Made by a program: the position numbers and the translations under genes. From the NCBI GenBank assembly GCA_021731085.1, contig JAKFYB010000003.1, positions 62,001 through 126,000 of the forward strand: a stretch of DNA of 64,000 nucleotides. Direction: 5' to 3'. This DNA comes from Dehalococcoidia bacterium. Its GTDB lineage: Bacteria > Chloroflexota > Dehalococcoidia > DSTF01 > JACRBR01. Of the stretch, positions 33,627 to 52,510 are shown piece by piece. The notes under the pieces are model-generated. The model did no database searches. It saw nothing but the letters and a program-made list of their open reading frames with translations, and was not told the origin of the DNA. Each line of letters opens with the position of its first letter. Positions within the stretch are counted from its first letter, which is position 1.

Positions 33627-35300
33627 ATGGCAGAAGCGACCCCCGCCACCGGCCCATCGCAACATGAACAAACAGCCGGGGTCGCCGTACCCGCGTGGCT
33701 GACGCCGCTCGCCATCGACGTCATCTTCATCACAGCGATCGGCATCCTCGCCCTCGTCCTCCGCACCTACGACCTCGAAGGTATGCCCTACGGCCTCCAC
33801 GGCGACGAGGCCTGGACTGGCCTCGACGCACAGACCATCAACAACGGCGACTACGGAAGCCTCTGGCCGTACACGCGCGCCGCCCTCGGCCAGCCGATCG
33901 GGCCGATGTTCTGGGCCGCGCCGTTCGAGGCCGCTCTCGGGCCGTCGGTGCTCGCCGTCCGCCTGCCGATGGCCATCCTCGGCGCGCTCACCATCGTGAT
34001 CGGATTCTTCGCGATGCGCGTGATGTTCAATCGGCCCGCCGCCTACTTCTGGGCCGTGCTCGCGGCGTGCTCGTCGTGGCTGATCTTCTACAACCGCACC
34101 GGCTTCACCGTACCCTTCATGCCCTTCACGGAAGCGCTCTCGCTGCTCGCCGTCGCTGTCGCGCTCAAGAAGCGCTGGTGGCCCTGGTACGTGCTCGCTG
34201 GCGCAATCGTCGGAGCGGGGATCTATGGCTACTACTCGTACCCGTTGTTCGCCGTCGGGCTTGGCATTTACGTGCTCGTCCATTTCGCGATCGAGCGTCC
34301 GGAGCCCGCGCTCGTCCACACACGCAACATCGCTGTCATGGGGCTGACGGCGCTGCTGCTCATCCAGCCGATGCAGCCGTACTTTCTCGACGACGAGGTC
34401 GGTTATACGCACGACCGCACCGTCTTCGCAGTCAGCAACACGGAGCGCTACAAGGCAGCGACATCGACCAGCGAAAAAATCGACATTTACGCCGACAATG
34501 CGGTCGAACTCGCCCGAACGTTGCTATGGGAAGGGCAGATCGATTACTCGGACGGCACCGCCGGCCCGTCCGACATTGGCGGTGAAGGTAATCCGGCGCT
34601 CGACTACATCGCGATCACACTGGCCGTCATCGGCCTGGCGCTGTCGCTCGTGTTTGCGTTCAGTCGCCGCCAAGCGGCGTACCTCCTGCCGTGGATCATG
34701 ATTCCCCTCATCCTGATCGGCCCGATCTGGAGCGAGGGCGGCTACCATCGCCGCGCGCTGGGCATTCTTGTGTTCGTGCTCATGGCTGCGTCCGTCGCGA
34801 TGGCGTACATGATCGAGGTTGCGCGAAAACGCAACGGCATCCGCGGCGAGCGCATTGCCTACGCCGTATGCGCGCTGATTCTCGTCGTGTACGGCACGTA
34901 CAACGTGAACAGGTATTGGTCGCAGAAAGACGGTCCGGCGATCCTGTTCACGTATCTACCTGAGCTCGCGGTTGCGTCCGAGTGGATCAAGGAGCAGCCC
35001 GAAGACATGCCGGTGTACTTCTTCTCAGACCGCTGGTCGATCAACTACGAGACGTCGCGCTACCTCCTCGACGGCCGGGGAAATCTCTCCGATCGAGCGG
35101 ATGGCTTCGCCAAGCCGGGAGAAGCGGGCTTTCCCATTATCGATCCGGCTACTGGCGGCGTGCTCGTCTTCATCGCGCCATACACAAACACCGAAGGCGT
35201 AGACGCGGCGCAACGCTATCCGGGCGCGATTCGCTACGAAGGCCCGAGGCTGAGTAACGGTAACGTGTCATTCACCGCGTACGTGGTGGAACCGAGCTAA
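33627..35300 (+). CDS. GT39-like multi-pass membrane glycosyltransferase
   Basis: The 557-residue protein has about 11-12 transmembrane helices. The first outer loop carries MPYGLHGDEAWTGLDAQTIN, whose acidic pair matches the catalytic loop of the GT-C (GT39/PMT, ArnT) superfamily. LGQPIGPMFWAAPFEAALG follows. The C-terminal 130 residues form an extracytoplasmic domain without catalytic motifs. Such enzymes transfer sugars from polyprenyl phosphate to proteins or lipids outside the membrane. The start follows a -10 box directly. It is 32 bases upstream of a phospholipase D-family gene. Confidence 0.88.
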   Translation: MAEATPATGPSQHEQTAGVAVPAWLTPLAIDVIFITAIGILALVLRTYDLEGMPYGLHGDEAWTGLDAQTINNGDYGSLWPYTRAALGQPIGPMFWAAPFEAALGPSVLAVRLPMAILGALTIVIGFFAMRVMFNRPAAYFWAVLAACSSWLIFYNRTGFTVPFMPFTEALSLLAVAVALKKRWWPWYVLAGAIVGAGIYGYYSYPLFAVGLGIYVLVHFAIERPEPALVHTRNIAVMGLTALLLIQPMQPYFLDDEVGYTHDRTVFAVSNTERYKAATSTSEKIDIYADNAVELARTLLWEGQIDYSDGTAGPSDIGGEGNPALDYIAITLAVIGLALSLVFAFSRRQAAYLLPWIMIPLILIGPIWSEGGYHRRALGILVFVLMAASVAMAYMIEVARKRNGIRGERIAYAVCALILVVYGTYNVNRYWSQKDGPAILFTYLPELAVASEWIKEQPEDMPVYFFSDRWSINYETSRYLLDGRGNLSDRADGFAKPGEAGFPIIDPATGGVLVFIAPYTNTEGVDAAQRYPGAIRYEGPRLSNGNVSFTAYVVEPS

Positions 35301-47068: not shown

Positions 47069-50000
47069 ATGACCACCGAGCGCGCCGCAACCACCACCAT
47101 CCTCTTCTCCGACCTCGTCGGCTCCACCGAGCTGATGCAGCGCGCCGGTGACGACGACGCCCAGCGCATCTTCAAGGCCCACTACCAGCTCCTCCGCGAC
47201 GCCGTCAGCGCGAACGGCGGCGCCGAGGTAAAGTCGCTCGGCGACGGGCTGATGGTCGCGTTCGCGTCCACCGCCGACGCCGTCCGCTGCGCCATCGCCA
47301 TGCAGCAGGCCGCGCGCCGTCCTGTCTCGGGCGAGCGCATCACCATCCGCATCGGCATCAACGCCGGCGACGCGCTCCGCGACGAGGGTGACTACTTCGG
47401 CACGGCCGTCGTCACCGCCCGCCGTCTCTGCGATCGTGCCGGCCCCGGCCAGATCCTCTGCAGCGCCGTCGTCGAGGCATTGCTCGCCGGACGCCAGGCG
47501 TTCTCGTTCCGCGATCTCGGTGAACTCGAACTCAAGGGCATCACGACGCCCATCGCCACGCGCGAAGTCGTGTACGAGACGGAGCAAGCAGGCCTCGTGC
47601 TCAGCCGCACACCGTTCGTCGGGCGCGACGCGGAACTGTCGCGCGTCAAAGGCAAGCTCGCCGACGCGCGCACCGGCCGCGGCGGCCTCGTCATGCTTAT
47701 CGGCGAGCCGGGCATCGGTAAGTCGCGCATGATCGAGGAGTTCACTGAGCACGCGCGTGGCGAAGGCTCGGCCGTCCTCTTCGGCGCCTGCTTCGAGGGC
47801 GAGTGGGTGCCGCCATTCGCTCCGTTCGCCGAAGCGATCGAGGAATACGCGAAGAGCGCGGCCGTCGAGACGCTGCAGGCCGACCTCGGCCACAGCGCCG
47901 GCGCGATCTCGCGCCTCGCGCCATCACTGCGCGACCGCTTGCCCGATTTTGCCGAACCAGCGCAACTCCAGCCCGACGAAGAGCGCTTTCGCCTGCTCGA
48001 CGCCGTGTCGCAGTTCCTCATCGCAACGTCGGAGCGCGCGCCCGTCGTCCTTGTGCTCGACGACCTGCACTGGGCCGACAAGGGCACCATCGCCATGATG
48101 CGTCACGTCGCCCGCTTCGTGACGAAGCATCGCATCCTCATCCTTGGCGCGTACCGCGACGTCGAGCTCGATCGGCAGCACCCGCTCTCCGACGCGTTGG
48201 CGCAGCTGCGGCGCGAGGTCGAATACGAGCGCATCGCCCTCAAGGGTCTCGACGAGAGCGACATCGGCGCGATGCTCACGAGCATCACCGAGCAGGAGGT
48301 GCCCGAGGCGTTCGTGCGCGCGATAAGCGACGAGACCGACGGCAATCCGTTCTTCGTCCGCGAAGTGCTCATTCACCTCACCGAAGAAGGCAAGATCTTC
48401 CAGCAGGATGGCCGCTGGACCTCGAACGTCTCGATCGCCGAGATGGGCATCCCTGAAGGCGTCCGCCAGGTGATCGGCCGACGCCTTTCGCGCCTCTCCG
48501 ACGCCGCCAACAAGCTCATGACGGCCGCCTCCGGCTTCAACGGCCCATTCCACATCGATCTCGCCGGCGCCGCTGCCGCGCTCGACGAGAACGCAGCGCT
48601 CGATGCGCTCGACGAGGCGTTGCAGTCGCAGCTCCTCCGCTCGACCGGCGAGCACGACACGTACAACTTCACGCACGCGCTCATCCGCCACACGCTGTAT
48701 GGCGAGCTAAGCCCATCGCGACAGGTGCGTCTCCATCGCCAGATTGCCGAGGCGATGGAGCGCGTCTACGGCGACCGCGCGAAGGATCACGCCGCCGAGC
48801 TCGCGTTCCAGTTCCATCAGAGTTCCGCTGTCTCCGGCGCAGAACGCGGCGTCCCCCACGCGCTCGCCGCCGCGGATCAGGCGGAGGCATCGGCAGCGTG
48901 GGACGAGCAGGTCAACTTCCTGCGCATGGCGTTGGAATTGCTGCCCAACGGCGACGAGCGCCGCCCACGGTTACTCGCTCGTCTCGGGATCGCCCTGATG
49001 TGGGCGCTGCAGCCGGACGAGGGCGCGGTCGTCGCCGCAGACGCTGGTGCATCGATCGCCGCAAGCGAAACCAACGATGCCGCAGCCGACTATCTGCGCG
49101 ATGCGAAGAACGCCGCCTTCGAAGCAGGGAACATGCTTGCATCGCTAACCCTCGCCAGCGAGGGCATGCGGTACATCGGTGACAGACGCGACCGCGTCTG
49201 GGCCGACCTCCTCCAGAGCGATCATCAGGCGAGAACATGGAACGACCCGTCCGCGCTTGGCATACTCCTACCAGCGGACGAGCCGGAATTCGACCTGTGG
49301 ATCCAGGTCATGAACAGCATTCCGGTCGACGAGCGGCCATTCGCGTACGCGCGCTTTGAGTCGCGAAGTCAGTTTCTCAGCGACCTGGAGCACTTGCGGA
49401 GCCTCGACCGTGCCGGGCAGTCGCTGTGGTACTTGAGCGATCCTCGGCGCGCGAAGCGCGATTTCATGGACGCTCTTGCGGCTGCTGAGCGCGAGGGCCG
49501 CGTCGCAGAGCAGGTCCTGATCCACGGTCAGCTTGCCCGGGCCTTCGCGGCGCTCGGCGAATTCACCGAAGCGGAGGCCTCATGCGACAGCTGCGAGGCC
49601 CTCATCAGTCGGCTTCCAGGGCCGTCTGTGCACACGCAACAACTTGATATCGCGCTGATCGAGCTGCGGGCCGCGCGTGGAGAACCACTAGTGGACATAG
49701 ATCGCATTTCAGCTCCACGCGGTGCTGAAGACGGGTATGCGCGCGCCCTCGGGTTCTCGATTGGCGCTGTCGCTTTTGCTCAGGCTGGCAATCAGGACGC
49801 GGCCCTCGCTGTGCTCAGGCGAGCGCTGCCTGCGATCGAGCGTGCGCCGATCGGCGAGGTCAACCTCGTGTGCTACACCTGCAACAGCGCCTGGGCGCTG
49901 TGGATCATGCAGCGCACGGACCACGTCGAGGCGATCGAAAAGAGCCTGCGCGAGAAGATCATCGCGCCCGACCACCGCTTCATCCTGCAGGACGGCCGCC

Positions 50001-50275
50001 TCGCCCTCGCTCGCATCTTCGCCCTCACCGGCCGCTACGACGAAGCGAGCGAATGGTTCGCGAGAGCCCGCACCATCCTCGAAGAAGACGGCCAGCGCCC
50101 CCTCCGCGCCATCGTCGACTACGACGAAGCCCTCATGTACGCCCGCCGCAACGCCGAAGGCGACAAGACACGCGCTCTCCCCCTCCTCGAAATAGCGATG
50201 CAGCAGTTCACCGAGATCGGCATGACCGGCTGGACCCGCCAGGCCGAGGATCTCCGCTCCACACTCACAACCTGA
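47069..50275 (+). CDS. class III cyclase / AAA ATPase / TPR-like regulator
   Basis: The protein has 1068 residues from MTTERAATTTILFSDLVGST. The longer frame upstream reads through the repeat at 47002 and is not convincing. Cyclase domain 1-170: FSDLVGSTELM, EVKSLGDGLMVAF, FGTAVVTARRLC (the Asn position is Val). The AAA/NB-ARC-like ATPase (about 190-450) has MLIGEPGIGKSRMIEEF and VLVLDDLHWADKG. A long C-terminal helical region (about 600-1060) looks like TPR or MalT-type repeats. No DNA-binding domain is visible. It is a multi-domain signalling protein in the cyclase-rich neighbourhood; the partner is unknown. Confidence 0.9.
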   Translation: MTTERAATTTILFSDLVGSTELMQRAGDDDAQRIFKAHYQLLRDAVSANGGAEVKSLGDGLMVAFASTADAVRCAIAMQQAARRPVSGERITIRIGINAGDALRDEGDYFGTAVVTARRLCDRAGPGQILCSAVVEALLAGRQAFSFRDLGELELKGITTPIATREVVYETEQAGLVLSRTPFVGRDAELSRVKGKLADARTGRGGLVMLIGEPGIGKSRMIEEFTEHARGEGSAVLFGACFEGEWVPPFAPFAEAIEEYAKSAAVETLQADLGHSAGAISRLAPSLRDRLPDFAEPAQLQPDEERFRLLDAVSQFLIATSERAPVVLVLDDLHWADKGTIAMMRHVARFVTKHRILILGAYRDVELDRQHPLSDALAQLRREVEYERIALKGLDESDIGAMLTSITEQEVPEAFVRAISDETDGNPFFVREVLIHLTEEGKIFQQDGRWTSNVSIAEMGIPEGVRQVIGRRLSRLSDAANKLMTAASGFNGPFHIDLAGAAAALDENAALDALDEALQSQLLRSTGEHDTYNFTHALIRHTLYGELSPSRQVRLHRQIAEAMERVYGDRAKDHAAELAFQFHQSSAVSGAERGVPHALAAADQAEASAAWDEQVNFLRMALELLPNGDERRPRLLARLGIALMWALQPDEGAVVAADAGASIAASETNDAAADYLRDAKNAAFEAGNMLASLTLASEGMRYIGDRRDRVWADLLQSDHQARTWNDPSALGILLPADEPEFDLWIQVMNSIPVDERPFAYARFESRSQFLSDLEHLRSLDRAGQSLWYLSDPRRAKRDFMDALAAAEREGRVAEQVLIHGQLARAFAALGEFTEAEASCDSCEALISRLPGPSVHTQQLDIALIELRAARGEPLVDIDRISAPRGAEDGYARALGFSIGAVAFAQAGNQDAALAVLRRALPAIERAPIGEVNLVCYTCNSAWALWIMQRTDHVEAIEKSLREKIIAPDHRFILQDGRLALARIFALTGRYDEASEWFARARTILEEDGQRPLRAIVDYDEALMYARRNAEGDKTRALPLLEIAMQQFTEIGMTGWTRQAEDLRSTLTT

Positions 50276-50328
50276 TCTCCAAGCGCTCGATGGCACTCTG
50301 ACAAAGAATTACCAGCGCAAGCGATGCA

Positions 50329-50344
50329 TGTTTCACGTGAAACA
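50329..50344. promoter_or_regulatory. parS site 1 (ParB centromere motif)
   Basis: This is a perfect 16-bp palindrome TGTTTCACGTGAAACA, identical to the chromosomal parS consensus. It is intergenic, 54 bases after the cyclase regulator. Confidence 0.88.
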
Positions 50345-50501
50345 TCACCATTCGCCGCGCGCACACGGCGGCCTTCGTCCCGATCACGTCATTCTGAGTC
50401 CTTCCTGGAATGACGAAGAATCTGGCCACTGACTCGGCGGGCGTTCCATGCGCCAGCGCCACCAATGGCCGCGAGAGCCATGAACGGCCACGCGAACCCA
50501 A

Positions 50502-50517
50502 TGTTTCACGTGAAACA
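50502..50517. promoter_or_regulatory. parS site 2
   Basis: A second perfect TGTTTCACGTGAAACA lies 173 bases from site 1, in the same intergenic region before endonuclease III. The 50276-50570 gap holds these two sites and no gene I can support. Confidence 0.88.
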
Positions 50518-50570
50518 TCGCCATTGGCGATCGACCCATCTGTGCCCTCTGCGTCCTTCTGTGGACTGCT

Positions 50571-51353
50571 CTATCCGTCGAACGTCCCCACCGACGGGCA
50601 CACGTCCGCGAGCACGCAGGCGCCACACGCCGGCCGCTGCGCCGTGCACGTCCGCCGCCCGTGCTTGATCAGCCCGATGTGGAAGGCGTAGTACTCGTCC
50701 GGCGGCACCATCGCCTCCAACAGTGCGTGCGCCTTCTCCGCCGTCATCGCCGCCGTCCGCGCCACGTTGCCCTTTGCTGTCTGTCCTTTGCCCTTTACTG
50801 TCTGCTGTTTGCTCTTTGCTGTCGGCGCAGCCGCCGGCACCCGCTCCGCGATCAGCCCCAGACGCATCGCCACCCGGAAGACGTGCGTGTCGACCGGCAT
50901 CGCCGGCATACCCAGGGCGAACATGAGCACGCACGCGACCGTCTTCGGCCCGACGCCGTGCAGGTCGGCGAGCCACGCCCGCGCCTCGTCGGGCGGCATC
51001 TCCGCCAGGAACGACAGGTCGTATCCGCCTGTCCGCTCCCGCACCTCGCGCAGGACGCCCTGGATGCGGGGCGCCTTCGTCGGCGCGAGGCCGCCGGGCT
51101 GGATCGCGGCGACCAGATCCGCCAGAGGCGCGTCGGCGACGGCGTCCCACGTTGGGAAGCGCTCCAGCAGGCGCACGAAGGCCCGGCCGGAGTTCCCGTC
51201 GCTTGTGTTCTGCGACAGGATGGTGAGGATCAGCTCCGACAGCGGGTCGTGGTGCGGCCGCCACTCCGGGATGCCGTACGCCTCATCGAGGCGGCGGATG
51301 ATCTCGGGTATGCGGCTAACGCTTCGGGCGGCGTTCTTGCGGGCGTGGGCCAT
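50571..51353 (-). CDS. nth: endonuclease III (DNA glycosylase/AP lyase) with repeat-derived insert
   Basis: The 260-residue protein removes oxidised pyrimidines. The helix-hairpin-helix is ADLHGVGPKTVACVLMF with the catalytic Lys, and MPVDTHVFRVAMRLGL gives the catalytic Asp. The [4Fe-4S] ligands are spaced C-x6-C-x2-C-x5-C in CTAQRPACGACVLADVC. Residues about 175-200 are a Lys/Thr/Gln-rich insert (TAKSKQQTVKGKGQTAKGN) encoded by eight heptanucleotide repeats at 50767-50822. The frame is kept and the iron-sulfur domain follows normally. The insert lies in a surface region before the cluster domain, so the enzyme may still work. Confidence 0.94.
   Translation of the reverse strand: MAHARKNAARSVSRIPEIIRRLDEAYGIPEWRPHHDPLSELILTILSQNTSDGNSGRAFVRLLERFPTWDAVADAPLADLVAAIQPGGLAPTKAPRIQGVLREVRERTGGYDLSFLAEMPPDEARAWLADLHGVGPKTVACVLMFALGMPAMPVDTHVFRVAMRLGLIAERVPAAAPTAKSKQQTVKGKGQTAKGNVARTAAMTAEKAHALLEAMVPPDEYYAFHIGLIKHGRRTCTAQRPACGACVLADVCPSVGTFDG
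50767..50822. repeat. eight heptanucleotide repeats inside nth
   Basis: Units TTGCCCT, TTGCTGT, CTGTCCT, TTGCCCT, TTACTGT, CTGCTGT, TTGCTCT and TTGCTGT run head to tail. It is the only one of these loci that lies inside a coding sequence. Confidence 0.8.
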
Positions 51354-51404
51354 GCTTCGGAGGTTACAGGCGACTCGCTACAGGTGACAGATCGCCTGTG
51401 GCGA

Positions 51405-51420
51405 TGTTTCACGTGAAACA
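51405..51420. promoter_or_regulatory. parS site 3
   Basis: A third perfect TGTTTCACGTGAAACA lies just upstream of the nth start. Three sites lie within 1.1 kb. Confidence 0.88.
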
Positions 51421-51437
51421 TCACCCACCACCGCGCC

Positions 51438-51468
51438 GTAGGGGCGAGTCGCTGATCGAAGACTCGCC
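51438..51468. repeat. GTAGGGGCGAGT dispersed repeat
   Basis: GTAGGGGCGAGTC followed by GACTCGCC forms an imperfect hairpin. It is related to the copies at 2085 and 46921. Confidence 0.45.
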
Positions 51469-51520
51469 ACAGGAGAACTCGCCCTTCTGCGATTGACCCC
51501 CGCTGCGCTCGCGCAAGCAC

Positions 51521-51547
51521 AAAGGGCGGACTCAATGTCCGCCCTTT
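51521..51547 (-). terminator. terminator after the 3D-domain gene
   Basis: The 10-bp stem AAAGGGCGGA / TCCGCCCTTT has a 7-base loop and lies about 50 bases past the stop of the minus-strand 3D-domain gene. Confidence 0.7.
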
Positions 51548-51562
51548 GGATGCGATTCTTCT

Positions 51563-51602
51563 CTGACTAGCTGACCAGCCGACAAGCTGACCAGCCCGCT
51601 AG
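51563..51602. repeat. octanucleotide repeat at the 3D-domain gene end
   Basis: Five 8-base units CTGACTAG, CTGACCAG, CCGACAAG, CTGACCAG and CCCGCTAG occur. The last supplies the TAG stop of the 3D-domain gene. Confidence 0.6.
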
Positions 51603-52510
51603 TTGACAATCGTGATGTTCGCGCTGGTCGATCCAAGCTGACTGGCCCAGGCGAACCCGTCCGCCGTGTCGTAGAAGAACACATCGACCCACGGCGACGA
51701 CAGATGCCCACGGTCGAGGCACTCGTACGTGCGGCCCGTCGGGTCGCCTTCAATCTTGAACCTTGTCCCGAACGCCATATCGGTGCTGCAGGCAGCGGAA
51801 CCCTCGAACACCTTGATGCCGCTGGCCATCCCGCCGCAGAATCCCCCGCCGGCGCCCACACACCCGTAGATCGTGATGCGGGCAAAGAGCACCGTTCCGA
51901 CGCCGTAGCCAGATGCCCGGCCGAGCGACTGAGCCGCTCCGCGCGCGGGCGCGCTCGCGGCCTGAAGCGTCTGGCCCCGGGCAGCCGCGGCAGACTTAGC
52001 CGCCGCCTCGCGCTTGCCCCAGGCGTCCAGGGCGATGAGCGTGTCGATCTTCCGCTGTTCCGCCGCTCCGGCGATGAGCGCGGCACCACGGTCGGAGGCG
52101 GACGGGACGGCGGCCGCGTAGGCATCCTCCCAGCCGGATCCGGCGGCGGCGCCAGCTAGTGTGGGTCGGGCACTCGTGCCAGCAACGGCTGACTCAGCCG
52201 TTCGCGGCGACCCCAAATTGCCGACGAGGGCGATGGTCGCGGGGATAGCGGCAGCGACCACAAGGGCCGCGATGCCAATGAGCGTCGCGTGGCCGACGCG
52301 GCGGGTGACCGCGTCGCGCGAAGCTGCGAGCACGCCGTGGGTGGACGGCGTGGCGACCGAAGCTAACGAGCCAGCTTCGGCCATGGCGGGCTGCAGGTTA
52401 CTCCTGCTGCCCAACCGGCCCTGTTCGTTCAGGAAGGCCAGCCCGACCGACGCTGCGGTCCCGGCAACCAGCATGGCTGCCCTGGCTCCTGAAGCGATTC
52501 CCTTACTCAG
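51599..52510 (-). CDS. secreted or membrane-anchored 3D-domain protein
   Basis: The C-terminal third (about 210-300) is a 3D (three-Asp) double-psi beta-barrel domain like those of MltA/RlpA/YocH proteins. It shows FCGGMASGIKVFEGSAACST, FGTRFKIEGDPTGRTYECLD, RG and VDVFFYDTADGFAWASQLG. An N-terminal hydrophobic stretch and another near residue 70-95 suggest membrane attachment, with an Ala-rich linker between. The first ATG is at 52474, but it has no ribosome site. A CTG at 52510 lies just after GAGGAGG and extends a more convincing signal segment (LSKGIASGARAAMLVAG), so I prefer that start. It probably acts on or binds cell-wall material. Confidence 0.78.
   Translation of the reverse strand: MSKGIASGARAAMLVAGTAASVGLAFLNEQGRLGSRSNLQPAMAEAGSLASVATPSTHGVLAASRDAVTRRVGHATLIGIAALVVAAAIPATIALVGNLGSPRTAESAVAGTSARPTLAGAAAGSGWEDAYAAAVPSASDRGAALIAGAAEQRKIDTLIALDAWGKREAAAKSAAAARGQTLQAASAPARGAAQSLGRASGYGVGTVLFARITIYGCVGAGGGFCGGMASGIKVFEGSAACSTDMAFGTRFKIEGDPTGRTYECLDRGHLSSPWVDVFFYDTADGFAWASQLGSTSANITIVN

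What the first reader, a model, noticed from the sequence alone, without database searches (positions are those of the whole stretch)
50329..51420. Three perfect parS sites in 1.1 kb mark a likely centromere region
TGTTTCACGTGAAACA occurs three times (50329, 50502, 51405), twice in one gap and once upstream of nth. This matches the chromosomal parS consensus bound by ParB, and such clusters normally lie close to the replication origin. No parA, parB or dnaA is in the window, so the cluster is detached from its usual neighbours by at least several kilobases.
Basis: partly seen in the sequence, partly recalled or inferred. Interest (0 to 1): 0.65.

Follow-up and report, generated by a model that had tools for sequence, protein, structure and literature searches.

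The report
Scattered parS sites at origin-like skew flips
The three DNA sites are genuine docking sites for the chromosome-segregation protein ParB, but they are only one of about 17 such groups scattered through this bacterium's genome, and most groups sit where the DNA's strand composition flips as it normally does at a replication start point, which suggests this chromosome may be copied from many places rather than one.

Summary
Confirmed: three perfect parS sites at 50329, 50502 and 51405 (0.04 expected at up to 3 mismatches). The genome is a Dehalococcoidia (Chloroflexota) MAG of 52 contigs. It holds 29 perfect and 12 near-perfect parS in about 17 clusters on at least 14 contigs, one canonical parB, one dnaA and SMC. 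So this is not the single ori-proximal centromere; that one is the rnpA-yidD-yidC-jag cluster on contig C18. Unexpectedly, the window's GC skew flips from minus to plus at the parS cluster. Across 13 measurable clusters the strand-corrected third-position skew jumps upward by 0.225 on average (null 0.046 ± 0.033, 0 of 20,000 permutations); 12 of 13 are positive. Genes on both strands change, so gene orientation is not the cause. The same holds in another genus of the family (G004, 8 of 8). Relatives with parS only beside parB have nearly flat skew, and the sister species lacks parS at this locus. Best reading: dispersed, functional ParB sites lying where replication forks diverge, i.e. candidate multiple initiation zones. 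No DnaA boxes, AT-rich element or other shared motif marks the flips, some flips lack parS, and no coverage data exist, so origin activity is inferred, not shown.

The parts
50329..50344 (.). parS site 1 (perfect 16-bp palindrome TGTTTCACGTGAAACA, within the 18-bp ATGTTTCACGTGAAACAT)
50502..50517 (.). parS site 2, 173 bp from site 1
51405..51420 (.). parS site 3, 51 bp upstream of the nth start codon; forms a 32-bp inverted pair with site 2 (94% complementary)
50274..50328 (+). Polar left flank of site 1 (GATCTCCAAGC ... TGGCACTC ... GCAAGCGATGCA), shared with many other parS sites of the genome; begins at the stop codon of the upstream gene
50345..50357 (+). Polar right flank TCACCATTCGCCG, the side that faces the skew flip
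51201..52069 (.). Point where GC skew changes from minus to plus: best change point of strand-corrected third-position skew 51201 (C5:113201), cumulative GC-skew minimum 52069 (C5:114069)
47069..50275 (+). Neighbour: guanylate/adenylate cyclase + AAA_16 + TPR protein (not replication related)
50571..51353 (-). Neighbour: nth, endonuclease III (HhH-GPD + FeS), lying between parS 2 and 3
51599..52474 (-). Neighbour: conserved protein upstream of nth, no Pfam match; the pair with nth is kept in the sister species G001, which has no parS here

Best explanation
The three sites are functional parS sites bound by the single canonical ParB of this Dehalococcoidia bacterium. They form one of about 17 parS loci dispersed over the genome, roughly one per 210 kb. 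At most of these loci the strand asymmetry of synonymous positions jumps from minus to plus and, in the best case, falls back linearly over about 100 kb, as it does at replication origins. Proposed mechanism: replication forks preferentially diverge from or near these loci (secondary origins or initiation zones), and each new pair of sister regions is captured by ParB (and SMC loaded there), so each initiation zone carries its own centromere. SHOWN: perfect dispersed parS, a single canonical ParB, the skew jumps, their independence of gene orientation, and the same association in a second genus. INFERRED: ParB binding, fork divergence, SMC loading, and that ParB-parS helps to place initiation rather than merely following it.
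For: 29 perfect and 12 near-perfect sites against 0 for the reversed control motif. The 18-bp core is intact in clusters whose flanks have diverged. Raw skew flips at the window's cluster and the cumulative minimum of the whole 200-kb contig lies at 52069. C5 shows a factory-roof profile: r = -0.77 over the left 113 kb and -0.94 over the right 86 kb, with a jump from -0.31 to +0.30. Third-position skew changes sign on plus AND minus genes: G/C is .412/.387 in genes pointing away from parS and .330/.476 in genes pointing toward it; codon positions 1 and 2 are unchanged, and gene numbers are balanced, 233 against 240. Seven of the 12 strongest upward jumps in 1.14 Mb have a perfect parS within 4 kb, against none of 3 downward jumps. 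Permutation: mean jump 0.225 against 0.046 +/- 0.033, 0/20,000. G004, another genus with different parS flanks: 8/8 jumps positive, mean 0.206 against 0.008 elsewhere on the same stretches. Control: single-locus relatives G005 and G002 have flat skew and no jumps, and the only jump in G006 lies 2 kb from a one-mismatch parS. Multi-origin bacterial replication has a precedent in cyanobacteria (PMC7198777).
Against: No DnaA-box cluster and no AT-rich dip at the flips, and no oligomer other than parS and its flanks shared by them. No replication genes recur at the loci. At least four upward jumps have no parS within 4 kb: C8:56651, C7:94001, C2:105401, C23:14401. Some parS clusters show little or no jump: C19, C1:9k, and C2:85k, which lies 20 kb from a flip. 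In G011 the parB-proximal parS shows no flip, and in G004 only a weak one (0.10). The second half of C1 has skew rising gradually without a flip. There is no leading-strand gene bias. No coverage or marker-frequency data were available, and the genome is a fragmented MAG.
Confidence: 0.45

Rival explanations
1. ParB-SMC domain model: the dispersed parS are extra SMC-loading sites that organise 200-kb domains. The strand asymmetry comes from something tied to ParB/SMC (or to fork behaviour at the loading sites), not from initiation; the chromosome has one DnaA-dependent origin.
For: parS is the only shared landmark at the flips; SMC is present; no DnaA boxes at the flips. Dispersed parS are known elsewhere, e.g. 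ten putative sites in P. aeruginosa, four of them close to oriC (abstract of PMC4368675).
Against: No mechanism is known to me by which SMC loading would bias synonymous G versus C over tens of kilobases on both gene strands; the pattern (G and slightly T up on the strand leading away) is the usual replication-type asymmetry.
Confidence: 0.2
2. Multipartite genome: the clusters are the origin-centromere regions of many replicons of about 200 kb, all served by one ParB.
For: About one cluster per 210 kb; C5 looks like one symmetric 200-kb unit.
Against: Single contigs carry several clusters (C1 at 9 and 104 kb; C2 at 85 and 146 kb; C9 at 0-2 and 36-39 kb). Only one canonical parB and one strong DnaA were found, and no initiator genes recur at the clusters.
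Confidence: 0.1
3. A small parS-bearing repeat spreads through the genome (polar flank, 160-190-bp tandem copies) and simply tends to land or survive at replication-direction switches or between operons; ParB binding at most copies is incidental.
For: Shared polar flanks beyond the 16-mer and about 180-bp unit spacing; flank orientation follows local skew sign in 27 of 32 sites; no parS at this locus in the sister species.
Against: The core stays perfect while flanks diverge. G004 shows the same skew association with unrelated flanks. Some sites lie inside coding sequence (C24:36170, C9:936).
Confidence: 0.15
4. Assembly artefact or chance: misjoins at the repeated element, or the positions of a few gene blocks, create the flips.
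For: Several contigs end at parS elements (C9, C18, C45).
Against: Permutation 0/20,000; replication in an independent assembly. By reasoning, a misjoin through a polar repeat whose orientation follows skew sign would keep the skew sign, not flip it. Raw skew, which needs no gene calls, shows the same flips.
Confidence: 0.05

Closest known systems
Chromosomal ParABS / parS centromeres (B. subtilis, Caulobacter, P. aeruginosa, Streptomyces)
   Same: Identical 16-bp palindrome; ParB with ParB_N, HTH_ParB and C-terminal dimerisation domains; SMC present; an ori-type parS cluster near yidC-jag-parAB in relatives.
   Different: [quoted passage not shown] Here about 17 clusters are dispersed, most of them at local origin-like skew flips.
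Multi-origin, DnaA-independent replication of polyploid cyanobacteria (Synechocystis, Nostoc; PMC7198777)
   Same: More than one start point on a bacterial chromosome.
   Different: There the skew profile is irregular and no parS marking is reported in the passages read; here skew is strong and sawtooth-like, with parS at the flips. Replication itself was not measured here.
Putative double bacterial origins (PMC4403523), including Dehalobacter sp. CF with a second predicted origin beside parB
   Same: Extra local minima of cumulative skew; one case beside a partition gene.
   Different: Two predicted origins with DnaA boxes, against many loci without DnaA boxes but with parS.
Archaeal multi-origin chromosomes and the 'factory-roof' skew of eukaryotic origins (own knowledge)
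   Same: Abrupt minus-to-plus skew jumps with gradual decline between them.
   Different: Bacterial genome with DnaA and ParB; no Orc/Cdc6 is implied.

Membership tests
Chromosomal parS (ParABS) site | 16-bp palindrome TGTTTCACGTGAAACA | tested here: met
   Three perfect copies
Chromosomal parS (ParABS) site | Cognate chromosomal ParB encoded in the genome | tested here: met
   C29, ParB_N 1e-26, HTH_ParB 2.6e-35, ParB_C 2e-12
Chromosomal parS (ParABS) site | Cognate ParA (Soj) | tested here: inconclusive
   parA precedes parB in relatives, but parB on C29 has no parA beside it; AAA_31 hits on C6 and C11 were not characterised
Chromosomal parS (ParABS) site | Location close to the origin / par operon | tested here: not met
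   29 perfect sites on 14 contigs; the parAB-type locus is on C18/C29. This argues against 'the ori-proximal centromere', not against parS identity
Chromosomal parS (ParABS) site | ParB binding in vivo | not testable with these tools
   Needs ChIP-seq
Bacterial replication origin (oriC) | Minus-to-plus GC-skew switch | tested here: met
   Window switch at 51.2-52.1 kb; 13 clusters, 0/20,000 permutations
Bacterial replication origin (oriC) | Cluster of DnaA boxes and AT-rich unwinding element | tested here: not met
   None near the flips; AT profile flat. Consensus boxes are almost absent from the 1.34 Mb examined, so the test is weak
Bacterial replication origin (oriC) | Copy-number peak in growing cells | not testable with these tools
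   No read data
Multipartite replicon | One origin/centromere per replicon with its own initiator | tested here: not met
   Two or more clusters on contigs C1, C2 and C9; no recurring initiator genes

The most novel reading that the evidence does not exclude
A bacterial chromosome with more than ten defined replication initiation zones, each marked by its own ParB centromere. ParB-parS, rather than DnaA boxes, may be the positional mark for initiation, and the arrangement may have arisen independently in at least two genera of one Dehalococcoidia family.
Probability: 0.33. Interest if true: 0.93.

Novelty: new variant of a known kind. Interest (0 to 1): 0.7.

Why it matters
Bacterial chromosomes are taught as having one origin with the centromere beside it. 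Here a clean, testable exception appears: dispersed parS loci coincide with origin-type strand asymmetry in two genera, and relatives with parS only beside parB show neither. If forks start there, it would couple segregation and initiation at many places and give a bacterium with eukaryote- or archaeon-like replicon structure. If they do not, ParB/SMC loading itself would have to imprint mutational strand asymmetry, which would be equally new. Either way, depth profiling of one enrichment culture decides it.

Tried and rejected
(1) Gene orientation as the cause of the skew flips: rejected, because coding-strand skew is about 0 overall and both gene strands change. (2) Polar 8-mer ACGAACAC as a KOPS/Chi-like signal: rejected, it is a coding repeat of Thr/Asn codons. 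(3) DnaA boxes and AT-rich elements at the flips: not found. (4) A shared motif or shared gene at the flips other than parS: not found; the ParA-like gene at the C24 locus is an ApbC/Mrp-type protein by its sequence (my reading). (5) Conservation of position: neighbours of the G004 loci mostly map elsewhere in G000, and the sister species has no parS at nth.

Full report
OBSERVATION. Sites 1 and 2 lie between the convergent 3' ends of a cyclase/AAA/TPR gene and nth; site 3 is 51 bp upstream of nth. No parA, parB or dnaA lies on this contig.

GENOME-WIDE PICTURE. The genome is a 3.58-Mb, 52-contig MAG, 97% complete. Its closest named relatives are Dehalococcoidia/Chloroflexi MAGs; its sister in the same genus is NC_groundwater_1625. 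It has 29 perfect and 12 near-perfect parS, and none of the reversed control motif. They form about 17 clusters. One canonical ParB (C29), one strong DnaA (C42) and one SMC (C12) were found. In relatives the single parS cluster sits in or near rnpA-yidD-yidC-jag-parA-parB. In this genome the counterpart is contig C18 (rnpA, yidD, yidC, jag and four parS). The window's cluster is therefore an additional, dispersed locus. Within the class, 63 of 393 sampled genomes have any perfect parS and only this genome (29), G004 (10) and G059 (6) have four or more. Elsewhere in the phylum some genomes also have many, dispersed in G589 and partly in G481 but concentrated on one contig in G553.

SKEW FLIP AT THE LOCUS. 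GC skew is negative over the first 51 kb of the window and positive after 52 kb, with the cumulative minimum of the whole 200-kb contig at 52069, about 650 bp from site 3. The strand-corrected third-position skew of C5 is a factory roof: about +0.1 at the left end falling to -0.31, a jump to +0.30 at the parS cluster, then a decline to about -0.1 (r = -0.77 and -0.94).

IT IS GENERAL AND NOT DUE TO GENE ORIENTATION. I took 1.34 Mb of the genome as stretches and called genes with a simple hexamer model (1264 genes, 88% coding). Coding-strand skew is near zero overall. Across parS clusters the third-position skew rises on both plus-strand and minus-strand genes. Genes pointing away from parS have G .412 / C .387 at position 3, genes pointing toward it G .330 / C .476, and positions 1 and 2 do not differ. 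Of the 12 strongest upward jumps in nine contigs, seven have a perfect parS within 4 kb; none of the three downward jumps does. A permutation within contigs gives a mean jump of 0.225 at 13 clusters against 0.046 +/- 0.033, with 0 of 20,000 reaching it; 12 of 13 are positive.

REPLICATION AND CONTROLS. In G004, another genus of the family with 10 perfect parS on 9 contigs and unrelated flanks, all eight measurable sites have upward jumps (mean 0.206; 0.008 elsewhere on the same stretches). G005 (309 kb on two long contigs) and G002 (100 kb), whose parS lie at or near the parB locus, have nearly flat skew (sd of 5-kb values 0.03-0.06 against 0.18 here) and no jumps. G006 has a single jump in 80 kb, 2 kb from a one-mismatch parS. 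The sister species conserves the gene pair around nth but has no parS there even at three mismatches, so the locus was gained here or lost there.

ANATOMY. The sites share a polar flank, GATCTCCAAGC-n-TGGCACTC-n-CTCGCACCCGATGCA-[parS]-TCACCATTCGCCG, and often come as tandem copies 160-190 bp apart. Flank orientation follows the sign of local skew in 27 of 32 sites with a clear orientation (copies within a cluster are not independent). The TCACCATT side tends to face the flip, as at C5 and C24.

WHAT IT MOST LIKELY IS. Functional dispersed centromere sites lying where replication forks preferentially diverge. Steps shown: site perfection, single canonical ParB, skew jumps, independence from gene orientation, recurrence in a second genus, absence in single-locus relatives. 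Steps inferred: binding, SMC loading, initiation. Multiple start points in a bacterium have a precedent in cyanobacteria with irregular skew (PMC7198777), and double origins have been predicted, one beside parB (PMC4403523). [quoted passage not shown]

WEAK POINTS. No DnaA boxes, AT-rich dip or other shared motif at the flips. Four upward jumps lack parS, and some clusters lack a clear jump (C19, C1:9k, C2:85k). The parB-proximal locus shows no flip in G011 and a weak one in G004. In G059 the sites lie near contig ends in strongly skewed DNA and are compatible with, but do not prove, the pattern. There are no reads to measure copy number. An SMC-domain model without initiation, a multipartite genome and a spreading parS-bearing repeat remain open, with the probabilities given.

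VERDICT. What is there is more interesting: one of many parS loci at an origin-like strand-asymmetry switch.

Noticed in passing
window 50274-50357 and 40 other parS sites of the genome: Sites share a polar flank beyond the 16-mer, with 160-190-bp tandem spacing inside clusters; orientation follows the sign of local skew (27 of 32).
   Followed up: partly
G004 (loci L172-L189) and some G059 / G006 sites: Many G004 sites have a different polar extension, parS followed by T(T/A)(A/T)GTTCT; TCTGTTCT and TCCGTTCT follow single sites in G059 and G006.
   Followed up: no
G000 C29:2821-3765 (L024): parB has no parA beside it here, whereas parA-parB is adjacent in G001, G002, G004, G005 and G011.
   Followed up: partly
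window 50767-50829: nth contains three 21-bp tandem repeats encoding a lysine-rich insertion (KSKQQTVKGKGQTAKG) that is absent from nth of the sister species.
   Followed up: partly
G000 C8:56651, C7:94001, C2:105401, C23:14401: Strong upward skew jumps without any parS-like site (4 or fewer mismatches) within 4 kb; possibly lost parS or parS-independent zones.
   Followed up: partly
G000 C24:33719-36857: A textbook locus: one parS on the left and two on the right in inverted flank orientation around the flip at 34901, one of them inside a coding sequence where it encodes DVSRETS.
   Followed up: partly
G517, G589 (family f119), G481, G553 in the phylum: Other Chloroflexota with 17-27 perfect parS: dispersed over contigs in G589, partly in G481, concentrated on one contig in G553.
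   Followed up: partly
near parS at C24, C18, C30, C2 in G000: Recurrent intergenic hairpin-like GGCCGACCTGCGTGTCGGCC sequences, possibly a dispersed terminator-like repeat.
   Followed up: no
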